Assembly: GCF_000730165.1 (NCBI RefSeq)
Contig: NZ_CP022113.1
Location: forward strand, 186,001 to 250,000
DNA from: Nitrospirillum viridazoti CBAmc
Lineage (GTDB): Bacteria; Pseudomonadota; Alphaproteobacteria; Azospirillales; Azospirillaceae
DNA length: 64,000 bases
Direction: 5' to 3'
This document shows positions 15,790 to 26,345 of this stretch, one piece after another. A program made the position numbers and the translations under genes. Below the pieces are notes generated by a model. That model was not told the origin of the DNA and ran no database searches. It saw only the letters and a program-made list of their open reading frames with translations. How positions within the stretch are numbered: position 1 is the first letter of the stretch; every line of letters begins with the position of its first letter.

Positions 15790-16611
15790 GCCTGCGGTGT
15801 TCGTCGGCACGGCTACGGACTGGAACTGTCCGCAGGGGAAACGAACCTGGTGATCGAGAAGTCAGGTTCCCAGTGAGCCTGGAGCCCCTGTTCATCCACA
15901 CAACATGATTCATTCGTCAGCAGCGAGGGGGCGGTTCAGCGGCTAAGACGTCGGAGTGCGTTTCAGCCAACTTCGCCCATACCTTCGCCTCGCTGATTGT
16001 TTACGGCCCCTAATGTCCGCCGCGCTGGTGCCCAACGCCGAATGGGTGGCGCGGGTGGGGGATGGCCCTACGCCACCCCCTCAACAACCGACTGGACGAG
16101 GATCCGGGCGGTCCGTGGCTGGTGGGGTCGGGGTCGCCACCCAGTACCTGCCGCTGATGTTCTGAAACCCGCCGCCACACAGCCAAGTGCGCCCGCCTGC
16201 CCTCACATCCGTGCAGATGGCCGAGCTCCTCGCCGACGAGACGGTGGCGTGGGGCCACACCCTGGCCCGGGCCTGTGGCGTGCCCGATATGGTCGCCTCT
16301 ACGTTGCCTTTGAGGGAAGGGTGGCGGCATCGGCAGGACGTGCGCGCCCTATCCAGCGCTTCCCTTTTGGCGTCCGGTCACAACCGGGGGAGGGCGCCTG
16401 ACCCAATAGAATGGCGGTTTGAGATGGCGCCAACAGTACGCACTCAGTAGCATTTATAAAATCACCCCATGGTTTATTGTATCAATGGCGAACACGTTAA
16501 TGAATTAGAACATCAGATCATATTGTTGACGGCTGTCTGCAATAAATATCTGACGATTGAAAATAAAATGCCAGCCGAGACGCGATCATAGTCATTTCTA
16601 GGGATTCTCAC
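15790..16611. other. Gene-poor interval with no convincing gene
   Basis: About 820 bases separate the UPF0149 gene from the ATP-grasp/GT operon. Short open frames are present, but none has a recognisable domain and they overlap each other on both strands. The stretch from about 16440 to 16611 is AT-rich and probably holds the promoter of the following operon. The GC-rich part may be decayed coding DNA, but I could not identify a parent gene. Confidence 0.4.
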
Positions 16612-17415
16612 ATGGAAAGATTAAACGATCATATTTTGCCTGTGCTGCGAACCATGCCTGACGGACCGTTTCGTGGACCGCTGCTGAGGGCTTTCGCCAG
16701 CCACGCGCCGGAGTTCGCCGCCATCGAGAATGGCTTCCGCGACCTGACCTCGCGGCGGCATGACGGCGAAACCCTGCGTCGGTTCTTCGCCAGCTGGGGC
16801 CAGACCAACAACAGCGCCATGACCGTGGCCGGCATCAGCAACCGCCTGACCTTGAAGCTGCACCGCGGCGAACCGGTGCTGGACCCGCAATCCCTGCTGC
16901 AGGCTCTGGTTTCCCTGCATCGCATCATCGACGAAGACTTGGCGGTGACGCACAAGATCCTGCATTCGAAGATGTTCCACATCATGGCGTCCGACATCGT
17001 CGGCGATGACGCTTGGCTGCAAACCCGCTACATCGACCGGAACGCCGCCGATTTCAAGACGTGGAAGGACCACATGTCCTTGCGCGAACCCGACATCGCG
17101 CTGGGCCTGCTGACCACGTTGGTGCACGAGATCTACACGCATGGTGAGGTCGAGTTCATCCTGCCTCTGTTCAAGCAATGGCTGGTTGAACACTTCCATT
17201 ACACGGCAGAAGACACCGCCCGCCCGTTGCGTTGGATCACCGTGCATTGCGGTGGTACCGAGAAGAACCATTTCTTCCATGCGGTCAACACCCTGACCCA
17301 CTATGCGCGGGCGGTCGAGGTCGATTGGGACGCCTATGATCTGCACGGGATCGCGGGCCAGTACCTGAAAAGGAAGGCGGACGTCCTTCGGGCTCTGTTC
17401 CCCGGCCATGAATGA
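16612..17415 (+). CDS. Unassigned helical protein, possibly heme-oxygenase-like diiron oxidase
   Basis: A 267-residue, apparently all-helical protein. It carries acidic/His-rich helices: LHRIIDEDLAVTHKILHSK (about 106-124), LVHEIYTHGEVEFI (about 163-176) and HCGGTEKNHFFHAVNTLTHY (about 207-226). Helices with E-x2-H-x3-A and HxxxE spacing resemble heme-oxygenase-like/TenA-type iron-containing redox enzymes, which appear as oxidases in natural-product clusters. I cannot confirm the ligand set, so this is tentative. It is the first gene of a six-gene operon and overlaps the ATP-grasp-like gene by 8 bases. An AT-rich upstream region probably holds the promoter. Confidence 0.5.
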   Translation: MERLNDHILPVLRTMPDGPFRGPLLRAFASHAPEFAAIENGFRDLTSRRHDGETLRRFFASWGQTNNSAMTVAGISNRLTLKLHRGEPVLDPQSLLQALVSLHRIIDEDLAVTHKILHSKMFHIMASDIVGDDAWLQTRYIDRNAADFKTWKDHMSLREPDIALGLLTTLVHEIYTHGEVEFILPLFKQWLVEHFHYTAEDTARPLRWITVHCGGTEKNHFFHAVNTLTHYARAVEVDWDAYDLHGIAGQYLKRKADVLRALFPGHE

Positions 17416-18583
17416 CGGCCGGCGCCCAATCCTGGTCGAGACGAGTGGCGCCGTTGGGGTGAAGGCGCCGCTCCCCATGGTCGGCGGATTGCGCCATGGA
17501 GAGGTATGCTCCGACCGCGTGGTCGCGCTTCCGGGGGTGTACCGGGACCAGATGCGCACGCTGGCCGGCCTGCTCGACGTGGCCTTGCGGGCCGTGGTGC
17601 GGCGGTATTTCCTCGATGCCCGCATCCGGGCCATCTATTCCCTACCGCCGGATTTGGAAAACATCCTGCGCCTGGCCGCGCCCACACCCTATCGCGTGGG
17701 CTGGTATCGGCCCGACTTCATCCTGGACCGGGACGGAACGGCGCGCATTTGTGAAATCGGCGCGCGCTATCCGCTGAATGGCTGGATGGTCAGCCGCGCC
17801 TGGTCGCGGGGACAGGCGGATTTTTGGGACGATCTGTGCGCACCCTATGAACCGGGAAACACCGTGGCGCTGGTGCATGCCCAGGAGCCCAGTGGCGAGA
17901 TCGATTGCCTGTCAGATCATCTGGGTCAGGCCGGCGTCGGCTTCGTCGCCGTCCGGCCAGCGGACGTGAGCGTGCATGCGGGGGCGCTGTATGCCCAGGG
18001 ACGCAGGCTGGATCATCTGATCCTGCAACTGGACCGGAACGAGTTGCCGATGCTGGCGCCCGTCGTCCTGGCCCATCTTATCGCCCGTGGCCCCTACTTC
18101 AACGACGTGCGCACCGTGATCCTGGTGCATGACAAGCGCGTGCTGACGGTCTTGTCCGACGCGGAAATCATGCGCGACGCGATGCCGGCGGATCTCTATG
18201 GACGGTTGCGCCCCCACCTGATCGCCTCGGTTTGCGCCCGCTCGCCAGCTGAAGCCGAACGGTTGCTGCGCCAAGACGGGGATTGGATCGCCAAACCAAG
18301 CAGCGGCGGGCGCGGTATCGGCGCGTTGGTGCGCTCCGCCTGCGGCGAGGCGGATTGGGCTGACCGGGTGAGGCGCGATTGGCCCCACCTCATGTTCCAG
18401 CCCTATCTGGAACAACTCGACTTCAATGATCCGGATTTCGCCCATCCCATCCATATGGTGGGCATGCTGCTGTGCCGCGACGCCGTTTGCTACGGCAACG
18501 GCATGTTCCGCGGCTCGAACGACGCGGTGATCAACCTGCATCAGCAGCGCGGCAAGCTCTATCGGTGCGAGGCGGTGCCATGA
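17408..18583 (+). CDS. ATP-grasp-like ligase
   Basis: A 391-residue protein with ATP-grasp-like features. There is an N-terminal preATP-grasp segment (RPDFILDRDGTARICEIGARYP, about 100-121). A nucleotide-binding strand-loop, WIAKPSSGGRGIGALV, lies near residue 297. The C-terminal strand MFQPYLEQLDF is followed by GNGMFRGSNDAVINLHQ. ATP-grasp enzymes activate a carboxylate as acyl-phosphate and join it to an amine or thiol. Nothing here points to glutathione or D-Ala ligase specificity. Its ATG lies inside the end of the upstream gene (8-base overlap) and its stop overlaps the next start (ATGA). Confidence 0.65.
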   Translation: MNDGRRPILVETSGAVGVKAPLPMVGGLRHGEVCSDRVVALPGVYRDQMRTLAGLLDVALRAVVRRYFLDARIRAIYSLPPDLENILRLAAPTPYRVGWYRPDFILDRDGTARICEIGARYPLNGWMVSRAWSRGQADFWDDLCAPYEPGNTVALVHAQEPSGEIDCLSDHLGQAGVGFVAVRPADVSVHAGALYAQGRRLDHLILQLDRNELPMLAPVVLAHLIARGPYFNDVRTVILVHDKRVLTVLSDAEIMRDAMPADLYGRLRPHLIASVCARSPAEAERLLRQDGDWIAKPSSGGRGIGALVRSACGEADWADRVRRDWPHLMFQPYLEQLDFNDPDFAHPIHMVGMLLCRDAVCYGNGMFRGSNDAVINLHQQRGKLYRCEAVP

Positions 18584-19509
18584 GCCTTTCGGTCGTCATT
18601 CCGCTGTACAACAAGGAAGATTACATCGAAGAGGCCCTGGCCTCCCTGGCGCGCCAAACGCATTTGCCCCACGAAGTGATCGTGGTGGACGACGCCTCGA
18701 CCGACGATGGCGCCGCGCGGGCGGAAAGCGGCCTGCGTCGCCTGGCCCAGCGGGGCGTCGCACGCACCGAATTGCTGCGCCTGCCTGTCAACGGCGGCCC
18801 CAGCGCCGCGCGCAATCGCGGCCTGGAGCGCGCGGCCGGCACGGTGCTGGCGTTCCTGGACGCTGATGACCGTTGGCGCGATGACTGTTGCAGCGAAATC
18901 CTGCGCTGCATGCAAAGCCACGCCCTGGAACTGCTGGTGCTGGGGTTCGATGCCCCCTCCCACAGTGATTATTTCCCGGACATGGACGCCTTGCGGGACG
19001 AGGTCGTACCGCTGGAAGGGGCGTTGCATCGGCTGCCCCGCGTGACCGCCAGCGCCAGCCATCTGGACTTTTTCATGGGGCGGGCCAGCAACGTGGCCGT
19101 GCGGCGTGGCGCCATCGGCGAAGAGCGCTTCGCGGAAGGCCGGCATGTCAACGAGAACATCGACTTCTGGTACCGGGTCGCCAAGAGCATCGTCAAAGGC
19201 GGTGGCGCCACGGTGCCGGTGGGGCTGCTGGCTGAACCGGTGATCCGTTACCGGATCCTGCCGGACAGCCTGTCCCACCGGCGGTGCCAAGATTGGCGCC
19301 AGTTGCAAATCCCGCCCAGCCTGGAGCGCTTCCGCCACAGCGATGACGCCGACGACCGCCGGCTGTGCCGCACGCTGGGGCGCCGTTGGCTGACCTTCGC
19401 CATGGAAAGCCTGCCGGACCAGGCGCAGCGCGACGCGTTCTGCGGCGCCCATGGTGCTCTGCTGACGCACTTCGATATCGACCTGCCCTTGCTATGGAGG
19501 GCGGCATGA
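18580..19509 (+). CDS. GT2 family glycosyltransferase
   Basis: A 309-residue GT-A fold glycosyltransferase. The N-terminal VVIPLYNKEDYIEEAL strand-helix, the VVDDASTDDG motif and the nucleotide-sugar/metal DADD motif (AFLDADDRW) are all present. There is no membrane helix, so it probably works in the cytoplasm. It is coupled to both neighbours by ATGA overlaps. In this operon it could glycosylate the product assembled by the ATP-grasp and adenylating enzymes. Donor and acceptor cannot be predicted. Confidence 0.88.
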   Translation: MSLSVVIPLYNKEDYIEEALASLARQTHLPHEVIVVDDASTDDGAARAESGLRRLAQRGVARTELLRLPVNGGPSAARNRGLERAAGTVLAFLDADDRWRDDCCSEILRCMQSHALELLVLGFDAPSHSDYFPDMDALRDEVVPLEGALHRLPRVTASASHLDFFMGRASNVAVRRGAIGEERFAEGRHVNENIDFWYRVAKSIVKGGGATVPVGLLAEPVIRYRILPDSLSHRRCQDWRQLQIPPSLERFRHSDDADDRRLCRTLGRRWLTFAMESLPDQAQRDAFCGAHGALLTHFDIDLPLLWRAA

Positions 19510-20714
19510 GCCCGGATTCCGGCTGGATCGGGTCGGTAAGCGGCGATAGTCACGCCGTGGACGACATGATGGCGCGTGCCTTCGAGAGGGCACGCCGTCA
19601 TCCCTTCTGGCGCCACCTCTACCGGGACGGCGGACATTGGCGTGACGCGCCCGTATGCCAGAAAGGCGACTTGCTGGCGGCGCTGGACGGCTTTTCCCCC
19701 GCCGGCGAGGACCGGGGGATCTACCTTGTGCGCTCCGGCGGCAGCGCCGGTGGAGGCCCCCTGATCTTCCCCGTCGATATCGCGGAAAACCACGCCCAGC
19801 GGCAGGCGCTGGCCGGGCACTTGCTGGCCCGGGGCGTGTTCGCGCCCCGTTCGGTGGTGCTGAACCTCTTCGCCTACACCGGCCTCTATCGTACGGCGGC
19901 CATCGTGGATGACCTGCTGGAGCGGTGCTACGCCACCACCTTGCCCATGAGCGCGCAGTCCCCGTACAGCGACATGCGGGCGGCGGCGGAGCTGTTCCAG
20001 CCGACCCATCTGGCGAGTACGCCGTCCGTCCTGACCTTGTTCGCCAACTGGTGCGAGGAGTCCGGCCAGCCTTTGCCCCAAATTCCGCAACTGCTGTATG
20101 CGGGCGAGCTTATGCGTGACAGCGTGCGCGAGCGTCTGTGCCGCACTTTTGACATCCGCCAGATCTGGTCCCTGTACGGTGCGGCGGAAACCGGCATCTG
20201 GGCGGTCTGCGACGCCACCGCCACACCCGGGCTGTTCAGCATCCTGCCGCGCATCGTGGTGGAGATTGCCTCACCGGATGCGGACGGGTTCGGCGAGATC
20301 GTAGTGACCAATACCTGGCGTGAGCGGTTTCCCCTGTTCCGCTACAGCCAGGGCGATGTCGGCCGCATCGTGGTCCGTGACGGTGAGCGCATGCTGGAGG
20401 TTCGGGGCCGGCGGCCGCGCACCTTCCGATTTTATGAAATTACCCATGACGATAGCGGTTTCGCCGCCGTGGCCGAGGGCTGTGCCGCCTGGCAGGTGGT
20501 TCTGGATCTGGGCGGCGGCGGCTGCGACCGGCTGGGCCTTCATGTCGTTTGCGACGACCTGGCGATCCTGCCCGTCGTCGCCGAGCGCCTGCGCCGGCAC
20601 ATGAAACAGGATGAGGGCGGCGACACGACCTACGTGCGTGCGGTCACCTTTGCCGATCTTCATATCGACCCCACGACCGCCAAGACGGCGACGCTTGTCG
20701 ACCGGCGCCGCTGA
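19506..20714 (+). CDS. PaaK-like AMP-forming acyl-adenylating enzyme
   Basis: A 402-residue member of the phenylacetate-CoA ligase-like (PaaK / coenzyme F390 synthetase-like) ANL superfamily. Visible motifs are the phosphate-binding SGGSAGGG loop (about 77-84), the YGAAETG motif (A5 region) and FPLFRYSQGDVGRIV (A7/A8 region). The protein is shorter than PaaK. It would adenylate a carboxylic acid and pass it to CoA or another acceptor. It is coupled to the GT2 gene by an ATGA overlap. A similarly sized PaaK-like enzyme occurs in the second biosynthetic locus of this window. Confidence 0.82.
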   Translation: MSPDSGWIGSVSGDSHAVDDMMARAFERARRHPFWRHLYRDGGHWRDAPVCQKGDLLAALDGFSPAGEDRGIYLVRSGGSAGGGPLIFPVDIAENHAQRQALAGHLLARGVFAPRSVVLNLFAYTGLYRTAAIVDDLLERCYATTLPMSAQSPYSDMRAAAELFQPTHLASTPSVLTLFANWCEESGQPLPQIPQLLYAGELMRDSVRERLCRTFDIRQIWSLYGAAETGIWAVCDATATPGLFSILPRIVVEIASPDADGFGEIVVTNTWRERFPLFRYSQGDVGRIVVRDGERMLEVRGRRPRTFRFYEITHDDSGFAAVAEGCAAWQVVLDLGGGGCDRLGLHVVCDDLAILPVVAERLRRHMKQDEGGDTTYVRAVTFADLHIDPTTAKTATLVDRRR

Positions 20715-20733
20715 ACCTCCAGGGGACAACTCC

Positions 20734-21663
20734 ATGGAAAAGCTGGGCAATCTTCTCGTGTACGAATGGAACTCGTGGCGCGGCTATCTCATCAGCCATC
20801 TGGCGGGTGCGCACTGCGCGGCGCAATGGGATGACGACTGGACAGTGCTGGAAGCGGCCTGCGGCCCCGGCATCGACACGGTGCTGTTCCACCACTGCCT
20901 GTCGCACGCCGCCCTGTTCCCGCGCCAACGCCCCGCTTTTGAGCGGGAGCTGGCGCGGCGGGGCATCCGGGTGCTCAACGCCGGCCTGGCGGACATGCGC
21001 AAGCGCACGCTGCACGGCATGCTGGACCGCGCCGGCCTCAGAAGCGCGCGCGCGGCCCGCCAGGGGCCGGACGACCAGTTCCTGTTCATCAAGACGGACC
21101 TGAACTATGGCGGCAAGGCGGAGAGGGCGCTGCCCGCCGAGTTACAGCCGCTGTTTTCCGCCGCGGCCGACTGCCCCATCCGCGGCTGGGACGATTATCG
21201 CCTGATGCGCCGCGATGAAGTGGAGCCCGGCTGGTGGGACAACCCGGATCTGGTCATCGAGAATTTCATCGCCCATGACGACACCTTGTACCGCGTCTAC
21301 GGCTGCGGCGACGCGCTGGTGTGCATCCGGGCGCACAGCCCGGACCTGATCAAGAAAGAGGATGAGCGGCCGGAAGACACATGGGTTTACATCGATCGCC
21401 GGCAATTGACCCCGGCGATCGGCGACCACGGCGGCTTTCCCCGGGATTTGTGGCGGCAACTCGCCGGCTTCGTCGCCCAATATCCTTTCGACTATTTCTG
21501 CCTGGACGTCATCCATGACGGCATCCGGCACACCATCATCGACCTGAACCTAACGCCCTTTTACGCCCCGCACCCGCCCAAGGCGGGGTGGTTCGCGTTC
21601 CTGCGACGCGGCCTGCGGGAGCTGACCGCCGGCCGCCCCACCCTGATGGAGGTCGCCCGATGA
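20734..21663 (+). CDS. ATP-grasp ligase
   Basis: A 309-residue protein with an ATP-grasp core. FLFIKTDLNYGGKAER (about 111-126) gives the nucleotide-binding Lys and Gly-rich loop. DLVIENFIAH is the adenine-contacting strand. The C-terminal FCLDVIHDG...IIDLNLTPFY carries the Asp/Asn residues for Mg2+. It differs strongly from the other ATP-grasp-like protein of the operon, so the two probably catalyse successive ligations. AGGGGA precedes the start, 19 bases after the adenylating-enzyme stop, and the stop overlaps the next ATG. Confidence 0.78.
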   Translation: MEKLGNLLVYEWNSWRGYLISHLAGAHCAAQWDDDWTVLEAACGPGIDTVLFHHCLSHAALFPRQRPAFERELARRGIRVLNAGLADMRKRTLHGMLDRAGLRSARAARQGPDDQFLFIKTDLNYGGKAERALPAELQPLFSAAADCPIRGWDDYRLMRRDEVEPGWWDNPDLVIENFIAHDDTLYRVYGCGDALVCIRAHSPDLIKKEDERPEDTWVYIDRRQLTPAIGDHGGFPRDLWRQLAGFVAQYPFDYFCLDVIHDGIRHTIIDLNLTPFYAPHPPKAGWFAFLRRGLRELTAGRPTLMEVAR

Positions 21664-22448
21664 AGACCGTGTCCGTCCTGATCGCCGCCTTTCGAGCGCG
21701 CGCCTGGCTGGGCGACTGCCTCGACGCCGTGTTCGCGCAAGCGCTGCCCCCCGGCTGGCGCCTGCAGGTGCTGCTGGGCGTGGATGGCTGCGACGACACG
21801 CTGGACTATGTCAGGACGGCGCCGTACCCGGCCCTGCAGGTCGTGCACCTGCCGCGTAATCGTGGCACCTACGTCACCTTCAACACCCTGATGCCCTACG
21901 CCGAGGGCGACCTCATCGCCCGTTTCGACGCTGACGACGTGATGCTGGCCGACTATCTGGCGGAGCATATCGAGGTGCTGGAGGGCGGCGTGGACCTCAG
22001 CATGTCGTGGAGCGTGTACACGGACGAGACACTGCGGCCGACCGCCATCGTGCCCGCCCTGCCGGACTACCGTCCCCAGAACGGGCAACGGCGCAAGGGG
22101 ACGGACGGCCAGTTCGTCGCCAGGCGGCAGATCTGGGACAGCCTCGGCGCCTTCCGTGCCTGGCCCTGCGGCGGCGATACCGAGTTTGTGATCCGGGCGC
22201 AGGCCGCCGGCTTCCGCATGACGGTCCTGGAGAAGTTCCTCTACCTGCGCCGCACCCACGGCGCCTCGCTCACCACCCATGCCGCGACGAATTACGAGTC
22301 CGACATGCGCATGCGCCTGCAGGCGCTGACCATTCAGTACCGCGACGATTATGCCGCCGGCATCCGGCCGGTGGCCGTCGAGGCGGAGGTCGAACCGACC
22401 GCCCTCCTGCTTCGGTGTGCCGATTTGGGCCTGCGCGTAGCGTCCTGA
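21660..22448 (+). CDS. GT2 family glycosyltransferase
   Basis: A 262-residue GT-A fold enzyme with an N-terminal VSVLIAAFRARAWLGDCL strand-helix, LGVDGCDDT and the metal/nucleotide FDADD motif (ARFDADDVML). GGDTEFVIRA near residue 180 resembles the ED-type acceptor motif. It is the last gene of the operon, with an ATGA overlap to the second ATP-grasp gene. Two different GT2 enzymes in one operon suggest two sugar additions or a glycan of two residue types. No transporter is encoded, so export would rely on genes elsewhere. Confidence 0.87.
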   Translation: MKTVSVLIAAFRARAWLGDCLDAVFAQALPPGWRLQVLLGVDGCDDTLDYVRTAPYPALQVVHLPRNRGTYVTFNTLMPYAEGDLIARFDADDVMLADYLAEHIEVLEGGVDLSMSWSVYTDETLRPTAIVPALPDYRPQNGQRRKGTDGQFVARRQIWDSLGAFRAWPCGGDTEFVIRAQAAGFRMTVLEKFLYLRRTHGASLTTHAATNYESDMRMRLQALTIQYRDDYAAGIRPVAVEAEVEPTALLLRCADLGLRVAS

Positions 22449-22643
22449 TCTCTCCGCTCCCGGAACCTGCGCAAAGCAGATGATATTCGCGAATGAGCTA
22501 CGCCTTTGGAATAGTTTTGTCGCTGGAGTTGTAATATGCGGTTATACTTACGCCCGTTCCGTAGAGGGTGTGACCGCAGGCCCCTTCGGAAAGTTGATGT
22601 AACCAGAAGGGGAGCTGTCTTTTACGACAGCGAGGGGCTGCCC

Positions 22644-25600
22644 GTGAAGGTGAGGCGCTTTCAATTCGGCGACTGGCAAGTGGATGCGCAAGCCTGCGTG
22701 CTGTGGCGCGAGGATGAGGGGACGCAAGTCCAGGTCGAGCCCCGCGCCTTGGATGTCCTGGTGGCCTTATGCCTGAATGCCGGCAAAATACTGAGCGCGG
22801 AAGACTTGCTGCACCTGTGCTGGGACGGTGTCGCCGTCGGTGAGAACCAGGCGCAAAAGGCCGTTGCCCAACTGCGGCGGGCCCTGGGCGACAGCGTCAA
22901 CGCCCCCCGCTATATCGAAAACCTGCGCAAGCGCGGCTATCGCACCATTGCCCCGGTCATTTTCGCGCCGCACCGCGAGTCCGATACGCTGGCGGAAACC
23001 TGGGCCCGGGAATCCCCCTATGTCGGCCTGGCGCCCTTCGGTGCGGGCCACGCCTCGGTGTTTTTCGGACGCGACGTGGCCGTCGTGCGGCTGCGCGACG
23101 TGCTCGCCAGCCAGTTGCCAGGGGGTAGGGTCTTCGTGCTCATCCTGGGGGCCAGCGGCAGCGGCAAGACATCCCTGGTCCAGGCCGGCTTGCTGCCGGC
23201 CCTGATGCGCGCCGGGGCGACACCCCACGTCATGGATGCCACGGTCCTGGATCTGGGCGCCATCGGCGCGATGCCGCTGCTGACCGCATTGGGCAGCGCC
23301 TTGCTGGACCTGGATGAAGATGGGGAGCCGCTGTTCGCGGGCCGCAGCGCCGAGCAACTGGGCCAGAGCCTGGTTGAGGACGGGCAGGGCGCCAATGATG
23401 GGACCGCGCCCGCCGATGGCCGTTTCGTTCTATTTGTTGATCGGCTGGAGGCCTTGTTCAGCAGCGCCTTCGCCAGCGGCTTGCAGCGGCAGCAGTTCCT
23501 GGCCGCGCTTGACCGGCTGGCCCGGGGCGGCCAGGTCATGGTCATCGCCGCGTGCCGCAACGACTTCTATCCCGACGTGGTGGGCGAACCGCTGCTGATG
23601 GAGGCCAAGGCGGCGGGCGGACATTTCGACCTGATGCCGCCCAGCCGGGCGGAAATCGGCCAGATGATCCGTCTGCCGGCGGAAATCGCCGGCCTCAGCT
23701 TCGGCGGAGACACGGACGGCCGTGAGCGTCTGGATGACCTGCTGTGCGAGGCAGCGGCCCACAGCCCCGATGCCCTGCCGCTGCTGCAATACACCCTGCA
23801 GCAACTCTACCTGTTGCGCAGCCCGACGCGCGAGCTGACCCTGGCGGCGTATCGCGACTTGGGCGGCATCGAGGGGGCCATCGGCCGGCGGGCGGAAACG
23901 ACGCTGGAGGGCCTGTCGGCCGGCGCCCAGGCGGCGTTGCCCCGCATCTTCTCCCTCATCGTCGCTCTCAGCGCCATTGACGATGCCGTGCGCGGCGTGC
24001 TCGCCCGCTGGTCAGACCTGAGGTCCGATGACGAGCGCGCCCTGGTGCAGGCCCTGGTGGACGAGCGCTTGTTCGTCAGCCGGGTGTCGGGCGGTGAGGC
24101 CGTCTTCGGCGTCGCCCATGAGGCGCTGCTGCGGCAGTGGCCCCGCGCCGTGTCATGGATTGCTGAGCACCGTCAGGCCCTGCGCGTCCGCAGCCAACTG
24201 GAAGGGCTGGCCCGGCAATGGGCGGCGGAAGGCCGGCGGTCCGACCGCCTGTTGCGGCGGGGAAAGCCGTTGGAGGAGGCGCGCGACCTGCTGAGCGAGG
24301 GCATCGTGCCTGTGGGCCCCGACGTGAACGCCCTGGTCACCGCCTCCGCCCGCCACGTCAAGCGGGCCGAGCGTCTGCGCCTGGGCGCCCTGGCCGCCTT
24401 CGCCGCCATCGCCCTGGTCGCTGCCTTCCTGGGCCTGCGCGCCGGCCGGGCGGAAAAGGTGGCGGCCCTGCGCCTGCAGGAGGCGGAGGATCTGGCCGAC
24501 TACATGCTGGACGAACTGGCCGACAAGCTGCGGCCGCTGGGCCGGCTGGACCTGCTGGATGGCGTGGCGCAGAAGGCGCTGGGCTATCTCACCACCGACG
24601 ACCCCGGCCGCATCCCCAGCGCCGCCCGCCTGCGTCAGGCCAAGGCGCTGCAAACCTTGGCGGACGTGGACCGCTCCCGCGGCAACGTCGACGCAGCGCT
24701 GAAGGCCTTGGGCCAAGCGGAGAGCTTGCTGCAAGCCAATTTGAAAGAGGGCGATGTTGATCCTGAAACGTTGAAGATCTCGGGAACGGTTGCTTTTTGG
24801 TTTGGGCAGATCGCCATTGATCAGGGGCGATTAGATGAGGGATTGCGCCGCTACACTCAGTATCGAGATTTCGCGCAGCGCCGTATGCAGCTTCAGCCAA
24901 ATGAGCCGGACGCCTGGATTGAACTTTCCTATGCATTGAGCAGCTTAGGCGGCATACAGCTGCGGAAAGGGGATGGAAGCGCGGCCACGGCCAACCTTAA
25001 CGCATCCATTTCTTTGAAACGGCGAGCGCTGACGATCCATCCGGAAAATACCGCGCTGCAAGCGGAATTGGCGAACAGCCTATCTTGGCTTGCCCTTACG
25101 GAGGCCGAGCAGGGGCAATTGGAAACAGCGATCAATCTTTATGATCAGCAACGCGAAGTGCTGGATAATGTGAAGCGCCAAGATCCAGATGCAGCGCTTT
25201 GGTCATTCCGTCTCGCAGCCGCCAATCGGCTAAAAAGTTCGGTGCTGCTGGCTTTGGGTAAGACTAAATCCGCCCTTATCAGCCTAGGACAAGCGGAAAA
25301 ACAAATTAATGATAGCTTGAACAAAGAGCCAGAGAATAGGCGTTGGCAAGCCACCCGGATAGAAATAGGCCTCTTAAAGGCGCGGGCGGACTTGATGTTG
25401 GGAAAAGTCCAGAGTGTCTTGCCGGACATCCTCGATATTGAAGTAGTAATTGATCAGATGCTCCGTGCCAATCCTGCGGACGATTGGGAGCAACGCCATA
25501 AGGCTCAATCGTTATTGCTGCATGGCATTGCCTTGACAGAACTGAATGATTTAGATGCCGCTAAGCAGAAAATCGATGAAGCGGCGAGAATTGCCCAAAA

Positions 25601-25898
25601 AGTGGCGGATCGGGATGGGCAGGATAGGCTGCGGGCTATCCTTCTCGCCAATATCCTGCTAGCTGCAGCCGAAATCGATTTGAAACAAGGCGCTGGGGCG
25701 GGTGCGAAACAAACCTGCCAAGGTGCTATAGATGCTCTGCGGTCTATAGTTCCATCAAGCAGTGACTTCAGGGTTCTTGATCCCTGGGTCCGTGCCAACC
25801 GATGTGGCGGGGACCAAGGGGTAGCCAATGCCTCGGCGCAGATTCTAGATAGTATAGGTTATCGAGATATCGAGTATTTGCAAAATCTAAGGAAGTAA
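22644..25898 (+). CDS. Winged-helix / nSTAND NTPase / TPR signalling protein
   Basis: About 1,084 residues in four parts: an OmpR/CadC-type winged helix (about 3-105); an nSTAND-like NTPase with Walker A GASGSGKT (about 169-176), a Walker B-like FVLFVDRLE and a conflict-domain AHEALLRQWPR tail; one membrane helix (about 579-600); then TPR-like helical repeats to the end. Such proteins link ligand sensing by repeats to transcription or effector control. I prefer the GTG at 22644 (GAGGGG upstream, winged helix begins at once); an in-frame ATG at 22536 with GGAG would add 36 unlikely residues. From about 24,720 GC content falls visibly, so the repeat half may have a different origin. A small gene follows 12 bases later. 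Confidence 0.8.
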   Translation: MKVRRFQFGDWQVDAQACVLWREDEGTQVQVEPRALDVLVALCLNAGKILSAEDLLHLCWDGVAVGENQAQKAVAQLRRALGDSVNAPRYIENLRKRGYRTIAPVIFAPHRESDTLAETWARESPYVGLAPFGAGHASVFFGRDVAVVRLRDVLASQLPGGRVFVLILGASGSGKTSLVQAGLLPALMRAGATPHVMDATVLDLGAIGAMPLLTALGSALLDLDEDGEPLFAGRSAEQLGQSLVEDGQGANDGTAPADGRFVLFVDRLEALFSSAFASGLQRQQFLAALDRLARGGQVMVIAACRNDFYPDVVGEPLLMEAKAAGGHFDLMPPSRAEIGQMIRLPAEIAGLSFGGDTDGRERLDDLLCEAAAHSPDALPLLQYTLQQLYLLRSPTRELTLAAYRDLGGIEGAIGRRAETTLEGLSAGAQAALPRIFSLIVALSAIDDAVRGVLARWSDLRSDDERALVQALVDERLFVSRVSGGEAVFGVAHEALLRQWPRAVSWIAEHRQALRVRSQLEGLARQWAAEGRRSDRLLRRGKPLEEARDLLSEGIVPVGPDVNALVTASARHVKRAERLRLGALAAFAAIALVAAFLGLRAGRAEKVAALRLQEAEDLADYMLDELADKLRPLGRLDLLDGVAQKALGYLTTDDPGRIPSAARLRQAKALQTLADVDRSRGNVDAALKALGQAESLLQANLKEGDVDPETLKISGTVAFWFGQIAIDQGRLDEGLRRYTQYRDFAQRRMQLQPNEPDAWIELSYALSSLGGIQLRKGDGSAATANLNASISLKRRALTIHPENTALQAELANSLSWLALTEAEQGQLETAINLYDQQREVLDNVKRQDPDAALWSFRLAAANRLKSSVLLALGKTKSALISLGQAEKQINDSLNKEPENRRWQATRIEIGLLKARADLMLGKVQSVLPDILDIEVVIDQMLRANPADDWEQRHKAQSLLLHGIALTELNDLDAAKQKIDEAARIAQKVADRDGQDRLRAILLANILLAAAEIDLKQGAGAGAKQTCQGAIDALRSIVPSSSDFRVLDPWVRANRCGGDQGVANASAQILDSIGYRDIEYLQNLRK

Positions 25899-25910: not shown

Positions 25911-26345
25911 ATGACGCCGCACGACTGCCCTTCTGGTGTGATAGATATTTCTGTTTGCATTGAATGGAATGCCAGAAAATTGAAATATGTCTGGTATTAC
26001 AATGGAATGTCGGCAAAAAATTTCTCTATTAGAGTGCCTGCTAGTGTTGGTCGCATCAGATTTGTGTTTGATAAGGTAACAGAAGGTAATTTTAAATTTA
26101 CCAAACCCGGGATTGTGGGATTGCCAAAAAGTAATCCTTTCCCTGACGCGACTGCGATTTCACCCGATATTGAGGATGGAATCATCACATTTTATAATAC
26201 GCAGCAGAACTGCGGGTATGTGAAGGTCGCCGCAATTACCCTTAACGCGGAGCTAATTGCTTCGAATGGGGAGGTGAGGCTCTCGTCAGATCCAGAAATG
26301 ACCAATACAGGTGGTGAAGCTGTCCCCCCTTCTTGCGGTCATTGA
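25911..26345 (+). CDS. Orphan small protein coupled to the nSTAND gene
   Basis: A 144-residue protein that I do not recognise. Predicted strands alternate with short loops (KLKYVWYYN, FSIRVPASVGRIRFVF, YVKVAAITLNAEL), so it is probably beta-rich, and there is no signal peptide or membrane helix. The gene is AT-rich like the 3' half of its neighbour. It has a strong AAGGAGT ribosome-binding site and starts 12 bases after the nSTAND stop, implying one transcript. A terminator follows. A target or effector of the nSTAND protein is possible but unproven. Confidence 0.6.
   Translation: MTPHDCPSGVIDISVCIEWNARKLKYVWYYNGMSAKNFSIRVPASVGRIRFVFDKVTEGNFKFTKPGIVGLPKSNPFPDATAISPDIEDGIITFYNTQQNCGYVKVAAITLNAELIASNGEVRLSSDPEMTNTGGEAVPPSCGH

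What the first reader, a model, noticed from the sequence alone, without database searches (positions are those of the whole stretch)
16612..22448. Undescribed-looking six-gene operon with two ATP-grasp-type proteins, two GT2s and a PaaK-like adenylating enzyme
Seen: a helical His/Glu-rich protein, ATP-grasp-like, GT2, PaaK-like, ATP-grasp and GT2 genes are joined by 8-, 4-, 4-, and 4-base overlaps and one 19-base gap. Known: ATP-grasp and ANL enzymes activate carboxylates, and heme-oxygenase-like diiron enzymes often decorate natural products. Inference: a pathway that ligates one or more acyl or amino acids and glycosylates the product without NRPS/PKS. I do not know a characterised pathway with this set.
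Basis: partly seen in the sequence, partly recalled or inferred. Interest (0 to 1): 0.85.

Follow-up and report, generated by a model that had tools for sequence, protein, structure and literature searches.

The report
Six-gene NRPS-free glycopeptide-like biosynthesis cassette
A compact set of six bacterial enzymes, found together in only a few Nitrospirillum and Niveispirillum genomes, looks able to join small acids and amines without the usual large assembly-line enzymes, oxidise the product and add sugars, which would be a new recipe for a small natural product.

Summary
Six same-strand genes (16612-22448) are joined by 8-, 4-, 4- and 4-base overlaps and one 19-base gap, exactly as written. 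All six occur intact, in the same order, in five other fetched genomes (four of the same genus and one Niveispirillum MAG), under purifying selection (dN/dS 0.09-0.28) and with differing neighbours, so they form a self-contained cassette. It is rare: 6 of 82 family genomes.

A has no Pfam family. It is helical with a conserved D/H/E/E/H/E/H set like a diiron site, and is probably a divergent heme-oxygenase-like oxidase (weak fold evidence). B resembles Cp1B, the ATP-grasp ligase of E-64 biosynthesis (E=2.3e-14). D is PaaK-like. E is a second ATP-grasp (ITPK-like). C and F are GT2s with intact DADD motifs. Distant A homologues sit beside a C-like GT2 in two alphaproteobacteria and directly upstream of an NRPS in Nostoc.

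Best reading: an NRPS-independent pathway to a glycosylated pseudo-peptide, related in logic to mangotoxin and E-64 but a member of neither. The product is unknown. B lacks an active-site Asn of Cp1B. The paper searches made found no description of this gene set.

The parts
16439..16461 (+). 23-bp element CGCACTCAGTRGYATTTATAAAA, 150 bp upstream of gene A; probable promoter/operator of the cassette
   Evidence: Seen in the upstream alignment. One copy in each of the 5 of 5 Nitrospirillum genomes with the cassette (4 exact, the sequences it was drawn from; G064 with 2 mismatches), none in G059, G060 (no cassette) or G073 (cassette present); the reversed control pattern gave 0 in all 8. In the window 1 match, 0 expected. 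No sigma-70-like site found.
16612..17415 (+). gene A: helical protein, probable heme-oxygenase-like diiron oxidase (267 aa)
   Evidence: No Pfam/NCBIfam hit. D109, H118, E173, E179, H212, E217, H220 kept in 10 of 10 intact members of an 11-row alignment, 6 of the 7 lost in the eleventh, a degenerate tandem paralogue; also invariant in the 6 cassette orthologues. Low-confidence all-helical model whose Foldseek list is led by TenA/heme-oxygenase-like chains at E >= 0.24.
17408..18583 (+). gene B: permuted ATP-grasp ligase, Cp1B-like (391 aa)
   Evidence: hmmsearch of PDB: 9cjn_A ligase Cp1B, E 2.3e-14. Foldseek with a poor model (mean pLDDT 40): 9cjn 5.5e-7, glutathionylspermidine synthase 3n6x 8e-4, then RimK and YgiC at weaker E. 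R101, D103, E116 kept; Cp1B N165 is G118 here in all 6 orthologues. 'Permuted' is inferred from motif order.
18580..19509 (+). gene C: GT2 glycosyltransferase (309 aa)
   Evidence: Pfam Glycos_transf_2 2.1e-28; DADD motif in 6 of 6 orthologues (window included) and in the C-like gene of G735.
19506..20714 (+). gene D: PaaK-like acyl-adenylating (ANL) enzyme (402 aa)
   Evidence: PDB 9s3l PaaK 2.8e-13 and 4r1l 1.6e-6; YG[AG]AE, GD and C-terminal Lys kept in 6 of 6, phosphate loop atypical (motif names recalled).
20734..21663 (+). gene E: second ATP-grasp, ITPK/RimK-like (309 aa)
   Evidence: Pfam Ins134_P3_kin 9.5e-6, above cut-off; PDB ITPK chains, best 0.0024 with the single sequence and 0.0058 with the profile; K120, G126-G127, D258 and D270-x-N272 invariant in 6 of 6.
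21660..22448 (+). gene F: GT2 glycosyltransferase (262 aa)
   Evidence: Pfam Glycos_transf_2 6.4e-14; DADD motif in 6 of 6 orthologues, window included.

Best explanation
The six genes are a self-contained biosynthetic cassette for a small glycosylated pseudo-peptide made without NRPS or PKS. Proposed order (inferred): A, a heme-oxygenase-like non-heme diiron enzyme, oxidises an amino-acid-like building block or intermediate. B activates a carboxylate as an acyl phosphate and joins it to an amine. D adenylates a second acyl group and transfers it to an amine or hydroxyl (or to CoA). E, the second ATP-grasp enzyme, makes another amide bond (or phosphorylates the scaffold). C and F add two sugars. 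Shown: the gene set, its conservation as a unit, the enzyme families of B, C, D, E and F, and the recurrence of A-family genes next to glycosyltransferase or amino-acid-activating genes elsewhere. Inferred: the fold and metal site of A, the reactions, their order and the product.
For: Six-gene order conserved in 6 of 6 genomes that carry E, window included, with neighbours that differ between settings, purifying selection on all six genes, and a shared upstream element in five of the six. B matches Cp1B, a proven amide-forming ATP-grasp ligase. D matches PaaK-type ANL enzymes. C and F are GT2s with intact DADD motifs. A-family genes: a C-like GT2 follows A by 2 bases in G735, and the same A-GT2 pair is in G828; in Nostoc sp. 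UHCC 0926 the A homologue's reading frame overlaps that of an A-PCP gene, followed by a C-A-PCP-C NRPS, a GT4 and a GT9 gene. Precedents: mangotoxin, with HDO MboA and two ATP-grasp ligases (abstract and passages of PMC13185094); E-64, with oxygenase, ATP-grasp Cp1B and ANL Cp1D (PMC12568646).
Against: A: no sequence link to known HDOs, and the model is poor. B: the residue equivalent to Cp1B N165, whose alanine mutant lost all or much activity according to the paper, is Gly in all 6. D: atypical phosphate loop. E: its only Pfam match is a kinase family. No transporter or resistance gene is recognised among the six. Orphan A copies exist without the other genes, so A can have a role outside this pathway. 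The upstream element is missing in G073.
Confidence: 0.5

Rival explanations
1. A cell-surface decoration operon: C and F build or extend a glycan or glycolipid, and B, D and E attach amino acids or acyl groups to it. The product stays on the cell instead of being a free metabolite.
For: The GT2s' matches include surface-polysaccharide models (TuaG, EpsD, EpsE) beside others such as mycofactocin MftF, all far below cut-off; no exporter recognised in the cassette; ATP-grasp and ANL enzymes can also modify polysaccharides (recalled).
Against: No flippase, polymerase or priming enzyme matched among the six, and no neighbour is shared by all six copies (flanks read by eye and by tblastn, not all family-searched); B's nearest characterised relative makes a free small molecule; the Nostoc A homologue is joined to an NRPS.
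Confidence: 0.25
2. B and E do not make peptide bonds: E is a kinase of a sugar or cyclitol (ITPK-like), and B is a degenerate or otherwise altered ATP-grasp protein. The pathway then makes a phosphorylated, acylated glycoside with only D activating a carboxylate.
For: E's only Pfam match is Ins134_P3_kin, over its cut-off, and its PDB matches up to E 0.2 are ITPKs; B has Gly at the Cp1B N165 position in 6 of 6.
Against: The ITPK similarity is short (E residues about 170-281) and the same fold is shared by RimK-type ligases (recalled); B keeps R101, D103, E116, K296 and the Gly-rich loop, and its only PDB sequence match up to E 1 is Cp1B.
Confidence: 0.15
3. The overlap-joined genes are a chance assembly or a decaying remnant with no common pathway.
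For: Two of seven genomes of the genus lack it; orphan A genes exist.
Against: Six genes intact in order in 6 genomes with differing neighbours and dN/dS 0.09-0.28 for all.
Confidence: 0.03

Closest known systems
Mangotoxin (mbo) pathway, Pseudomonas
   Same: A heme-oxygenase-like diiron oxidase (MboA) together with two ATP-grasp ligases (MboC, MboD) in one small operon, no NRPS (PMC13185094, abstract and passages seen).
   Different: No redox-protein family is recognised here, whereas mbo has the redox partner MboB; extra ANL enzyme and two GT2s; A shows no detected sequence relation to the HDO sets tried.
E-64 (cp1) pathway, fungi; mfa in cyanobacteria
   Same: Oxygenase + Cp1B-type ATP-grasp ligase + ANL amide synthetase without NRPS; B matches Cp1B at 2.3e-14.
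   Different: The E-64 oxygenase is Fe(II)/alpha-ketoglutarate dependent, not HO-like; cp1 has a PLP decarboxylase, and no glycosyltransferase or second ATP-grasp is named among cp1A-D; D is PaaK-like, and Cp1D was not compared with it here.
Polyoxin (PolF/PolG)
   Same: An HO-like diiron enzyme and an ATP-grasp ligase serving one peptidyl glycoside pathway (recalled; PolF chains appear only as weak fold matches).
   Different: Nucleoside pathway with many more genes (recalled); not compared by sequence.
Nostoc sp. UHCC 0926 plasmid pn1 locus (uncharacterised)
   Same: A-family gene directly upstream of amino-acid-activating genes, with GT4 and GT9 genes following.
   Different: Uses NRPS modules instead of B, D and E; no GT2 among the genes tested; A identity 26%.

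Membership tests
[quoted passage not shown]
   3 His + 4 Asp/Glu invariant in 10 of 10 intact members (several closely related), 6 of 7 lost in a degenerate copy; H-x4-E-x2-H differs by one residue from the H-x3-D-x2-H of the PF14518 set; helical model of low confidence.
[quoted passage not shown]
   No HDO/TenA Pfam hit for any of 6 members at E up to 10; hmmsearch of PDB with 6 and with 11 sequences gives only unrelated chains, E >= 0.1; hhalign to 5 PF14518 proteins (5 of 10 fetched loci; shallow profile) probability 0.1%. Foldseek list led by TenA/HO-like chains but E >= 0.24.
Mangotoxin-type cluster | HDO plus two ATP-grasp ligases | tested here: inconclusive
   Two ATP-grasp-type genes present; HDO status of A unproven.
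Mangotoxin-type cluster | Dedicated redox partner MboB | tested here: inconclusive
   No redox-protein family matched any of the six, but A has no family and the MboB sequence was not compared.
E-64-type cluster | Cp1B-type ATP-grasp ligase | tested here: met
   9cjn_A 2.3e-14, aligned over B 32-320, with N165 replaced by Gly.
E-64-type cluster | Fe(II)/alpha-ketoglutarate oxygenase | tested here: not met
   No such domain matched among the six.
E-64-type cluster | ANL-family amide bond synthetase | tested here: inconclusive
   D is ANL but PaaK-like; not compared with Cp1D.
Teichuronic/exopolysaccharide cluster | GT at equivalog level plus flippase/polymerase | tested here: not met
   TuaG 76.7 bits against cut-off 400 for C, 20.9 for F; no flippase or polymerase matched among the six.

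The most novel reading that the evidence does not exclude
Gene A founds a new family of diiron oxidases, not detectably related in sequence to known HDOs, whose core partnership is with a glycosyltransferase (A plus C): A installs the oxygen function that C glycosylates. The six-gene cassette is then the first NRPS-free pathway combining this oxidase-glycosyltransferase pair with two ATP-grasp ligases and an ANL ligase to make a glycosylated pseudo-peptide.
Probability: 0.25. Interest if true: 0.75.

Novelty: new variant of a known kind. Interest (0 to 1): 0.55.

Why it matters
Genome-mining tools keyed to NRPS, PKS or RiPP enzymes can miss clusters like this, where every gene is small and two of six (A and B) have no significant Pfam match. 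A confirmed product would add a glycosylated branch to the NRPS-independent pseudo-peptide pathways (mangotoxin, E-64), and the A family would give a new, Pfam-less oxidase to search with. The six genes span 5.8 kb, so expression in a laboratory host is practical.

Tried and rejected
Downstream nSTAND/Trans_reg_C regulator (22536-25898) as cluster regulator: rejected as part of the cassette, because its best matches lie on other contigs than the cassette in G062, G063 and G073; it is adjacent in the window, G061 and G064.

Viral contigs and plasmids: no relative of E in viral contigs; none of B or E in plasmids; D only 9 records at 25-31% identity; A two distant homologues.

B relatives in other proteobacteria: 3 weak partial matches besides the own genome in 398 genomes. 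None of A, C, D, E or F was found beside them at E below 0.05. By eye two are single ATP-grasp genes with an EIN motif; the gene of the third was not resolved. E in 359 phylum genomes: own only.

Structure: both AlphaFold jobs gave weak models (mean pLDDT 56 for A, 40 for B) from 5 sequences each. The VIA-align library was not available. Profile comparison of A with five PF14518 proteins: nothing. Rfam on 15800-22600: nothing at gathering scores. Sigma-70 and terminator scans of 16300-16700 and 22400-22700: nothing.

Literature: searches returned 0 papers; one search returned 2 (the mangotoxin paper and a review on three-membered rings, listing only); one search returned the E-64 paper; one search (Nitrospirillum with biosynthetic gene cluster) listed 2 papers, of which I saw titles and the starts of abstracts, on hopanoids and the edible plant microbiome. 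The library holds open-licence PubMed Central only.
Full report
Observation. Six + strand genes fill 16612-22448: A 16612-17415, B 17408-18583, C 18580-19509, D 19506-20714, E 20734-21663, F 21660-22448.

Where it is. The window lies in a 7.38 Mb, 4-contig genome.

Conservation as a unit. E was found in 6 of 82 family genomes, own included: 5 of 7 of the genus and 1 of the other 75 (G073, a Niveispirillum MAG). In all 5 others the surroundings were fetched, and all six genes lie in the same order and strand. B is in the same 6 of 8 genomes tested; A is in 7 of those 8. None of the 30 orthologous genes has an internal stop, and dN/dS against the window is 0.09-0.28.

Flanks. Of nine neighbouring window genes tested, the four upstream ones were found beside the cassette in none of the five other genomes within the stretches fetched (about 3-6 kb upstream). 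The downstream regulator and the small gene after it are shared by the window, G061 and G064 only. A LuxR-type gene is also beside the G061 and G064 copies and, as a fragment, the G063 copy. G062, G063 and G073 otherwise have other neighbours, and their best regulator homologues lie on other contigs. The conserved unit is therefore the six genes and no more.

Upstream element. A 23-base sequence lies 150 bases upstream of A (16439-16461). It occurs once in each of the five Nitrospirillum genomes with the cassette and in none of G059, G060 (no cassette) or G073 (cassette present). Four of the five were the sequences the pattern was drawn from, so the independent points are the fifth genome (2 mismatches) and the genome-wide uniqueness. 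It is read as a promoter or operator (inference). No sigma-70-like site or Rfam match was found.

Gene A. No Pfam or NCBIfam family. Beyond orthologues there are single copies away from the cassette in the window's own genome and in G059 (80-81% identical), homologues in Azospirillum sp. B510 (31%, followed by an MFS transporter) and Nostoc sp. UHCC 0926 (26%), two copies each in G735 and G828, and distant ones in three genomes of one other family (about 20%), each beside a gene read as a TauE/SafE-type permease (Pfam-tested for one). In the 11-row alignment D109, H118, E173, E179, H212, E217 and H220 are the same in 10 of 10 intact members, some of them closely related. The eleventh row, a degenerate copy in G735, has lost six of these seven. 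That joint loss argues that they form one site, of a diiron kind (inference). The AlphaFold model is helical but weak (mean pLDDT 56, pTM 0.58). Its Foldseek list is led by TenA-like chains and includes CADD, PolF, UndA and heme oxygenases, all with E of 0.24 or worse. PDB profile searches gave only unrelated chains. Profile-profile comparison with five PF14518 proteins found nothing, though that profile was shallow. The heme-oxygenase-like assignment is therefore likely, not shown.

Gene B. No significant Pfam match, but a profile of 6 orthologues hits ligase Cp1B of the E-64 pathway (2.3e-14), and a weak model gives Cp1B first (5.5e-7), then a glutathionylspermidine synthase (8e-4), then RimK and YgiC at weaker E. 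Cp1B residues R139, D141, E163 and N165 surround the nucleotide, and alanine changes abolish or strongly reduce activity (section read). By the printed alignment, whose chain numbering I took as offset by 15, B has R101, D103 and E116 at the first three and Gly 118 at the fourth, in all 6 orthologues. This counts against an unchanged mechanism.

Genes D and E. D matches PaaK-type enzymes (9s3l 2.8e-13), with its YG-x-AE, GD and C-terminal Lys residues kept and an unusual phosphate loop (motif names recalled). E matches the inositol phosphate kinase ATP-grasp family just over its cut-off and ITPK chains weakly. K120, D258 and D270-x-N272 are invariant in 6 (their ATP-grasp roles recalled). Whether E is a ligase or a kinase is open.

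Genes C and F. GT2s with DADD motifs in all 6 orthologues. Their matches to curated polysaccharide and other GT2 models are far below cut-off.

A and C belong together. In G735 and G828 an intact A is followed by a C-like GT2 (35% identity over about 297 residues), with no B, D, E or F orthologue nearby. In Nostoc the A homologue's frame overlaps that of an adenylation-carrier gene, followed by a condensation-adenylation-carrier-condensation NRPS and GT4 and GT9 genes. So in three settings an A-family gene lies with a glycosyltransferase, and in two with carboxylate-activating enzymes. The orphan copies, the B510 homologue and the three distant homologues were not seen with glycosyltransferases in the stretches read.

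Comparison with the known. Mangotoxin uses a heme-oxygenase-like oxidase, its redox partner and two ATP-grasp ligases (abstract and passages seen). E-64 uses an oxygenase, Cp1B and an ANL amide synthetase (abstract, passages and one section read). The cassette works like a mixture of the two with glycosylation added. It is not filed under either: it has no alpha-ketoglutarate oxygenase domain and no recognisable redox partner, and A is not detectably related to the HDO sets tried. Paper searches returned no paper joining these enzyme types or naming an ATP-grasp pathway in Nitrospirillum. The library is open-licence PubMed Central only.

Rarity and limits. The cassette-type A profile matched 1 of 385 class genomes, the own one. 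The wider A family matched 5 of 398 phylum genomes and 2 of 296 of G735's order. E matched 1 of 359, the own one. These are samples of species, so more distant cassettes may exist. No product, substrate or expression evidence is available.

Verdict. A real, conserved small biosynthetic cassette, not described in the papers searched; new variant of a known kind. Confidence is 0.5 in the NRPS-free glycosylated pseudo-peptide reading.

Noticed in passing
L018 11020-11820 (-) (G000:C2:1019025-1019819); L031 9816-10616: Single A copies (80-81% identical to gene A) away from any cassette in the window's own genome and in G059, which lacks the cassette.
   Followed up: partly
L041 8824-9666 and 10367-11239 (G735); L066 (G828): Tandem A-family pair in which one copy (in G735) has lost six of seven putative metal ligands and the other keeps all; possible inactive partner subunit.
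   Followed up: partly
L042, L043, L044: Distant A homologues (about 20%) in three genomes of one family, each beside a TauE/SafE-type permease (Pfam-tested in L042 only) and a divergent gene that reads as LysR-like by eye.
   Followed up: no
L033 9962-20585 (Nostoc sp. UHCC 0926 plasmid pn1): Unannotated A-PCP plus C-A-PCP-C NRPS locus with GT4 and GT9 genes, headed by an A-family gene.
   Followed up: partly
22536-25898: 1120-aa regulator with a Trans_reg_C DNA-binding domain and an nSTAND1 NTPase; homologues in all 7 genomes tested, next to the cassette only in G061 and G064.
   Followed up: partly
25911-26345: 144-aa protein without a Pfam match at 1e-5; only 38% identical between the window and G061, where the neighbouring genes are 77-97% identical, so fast-evolving or replaced.
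   Followed up: no
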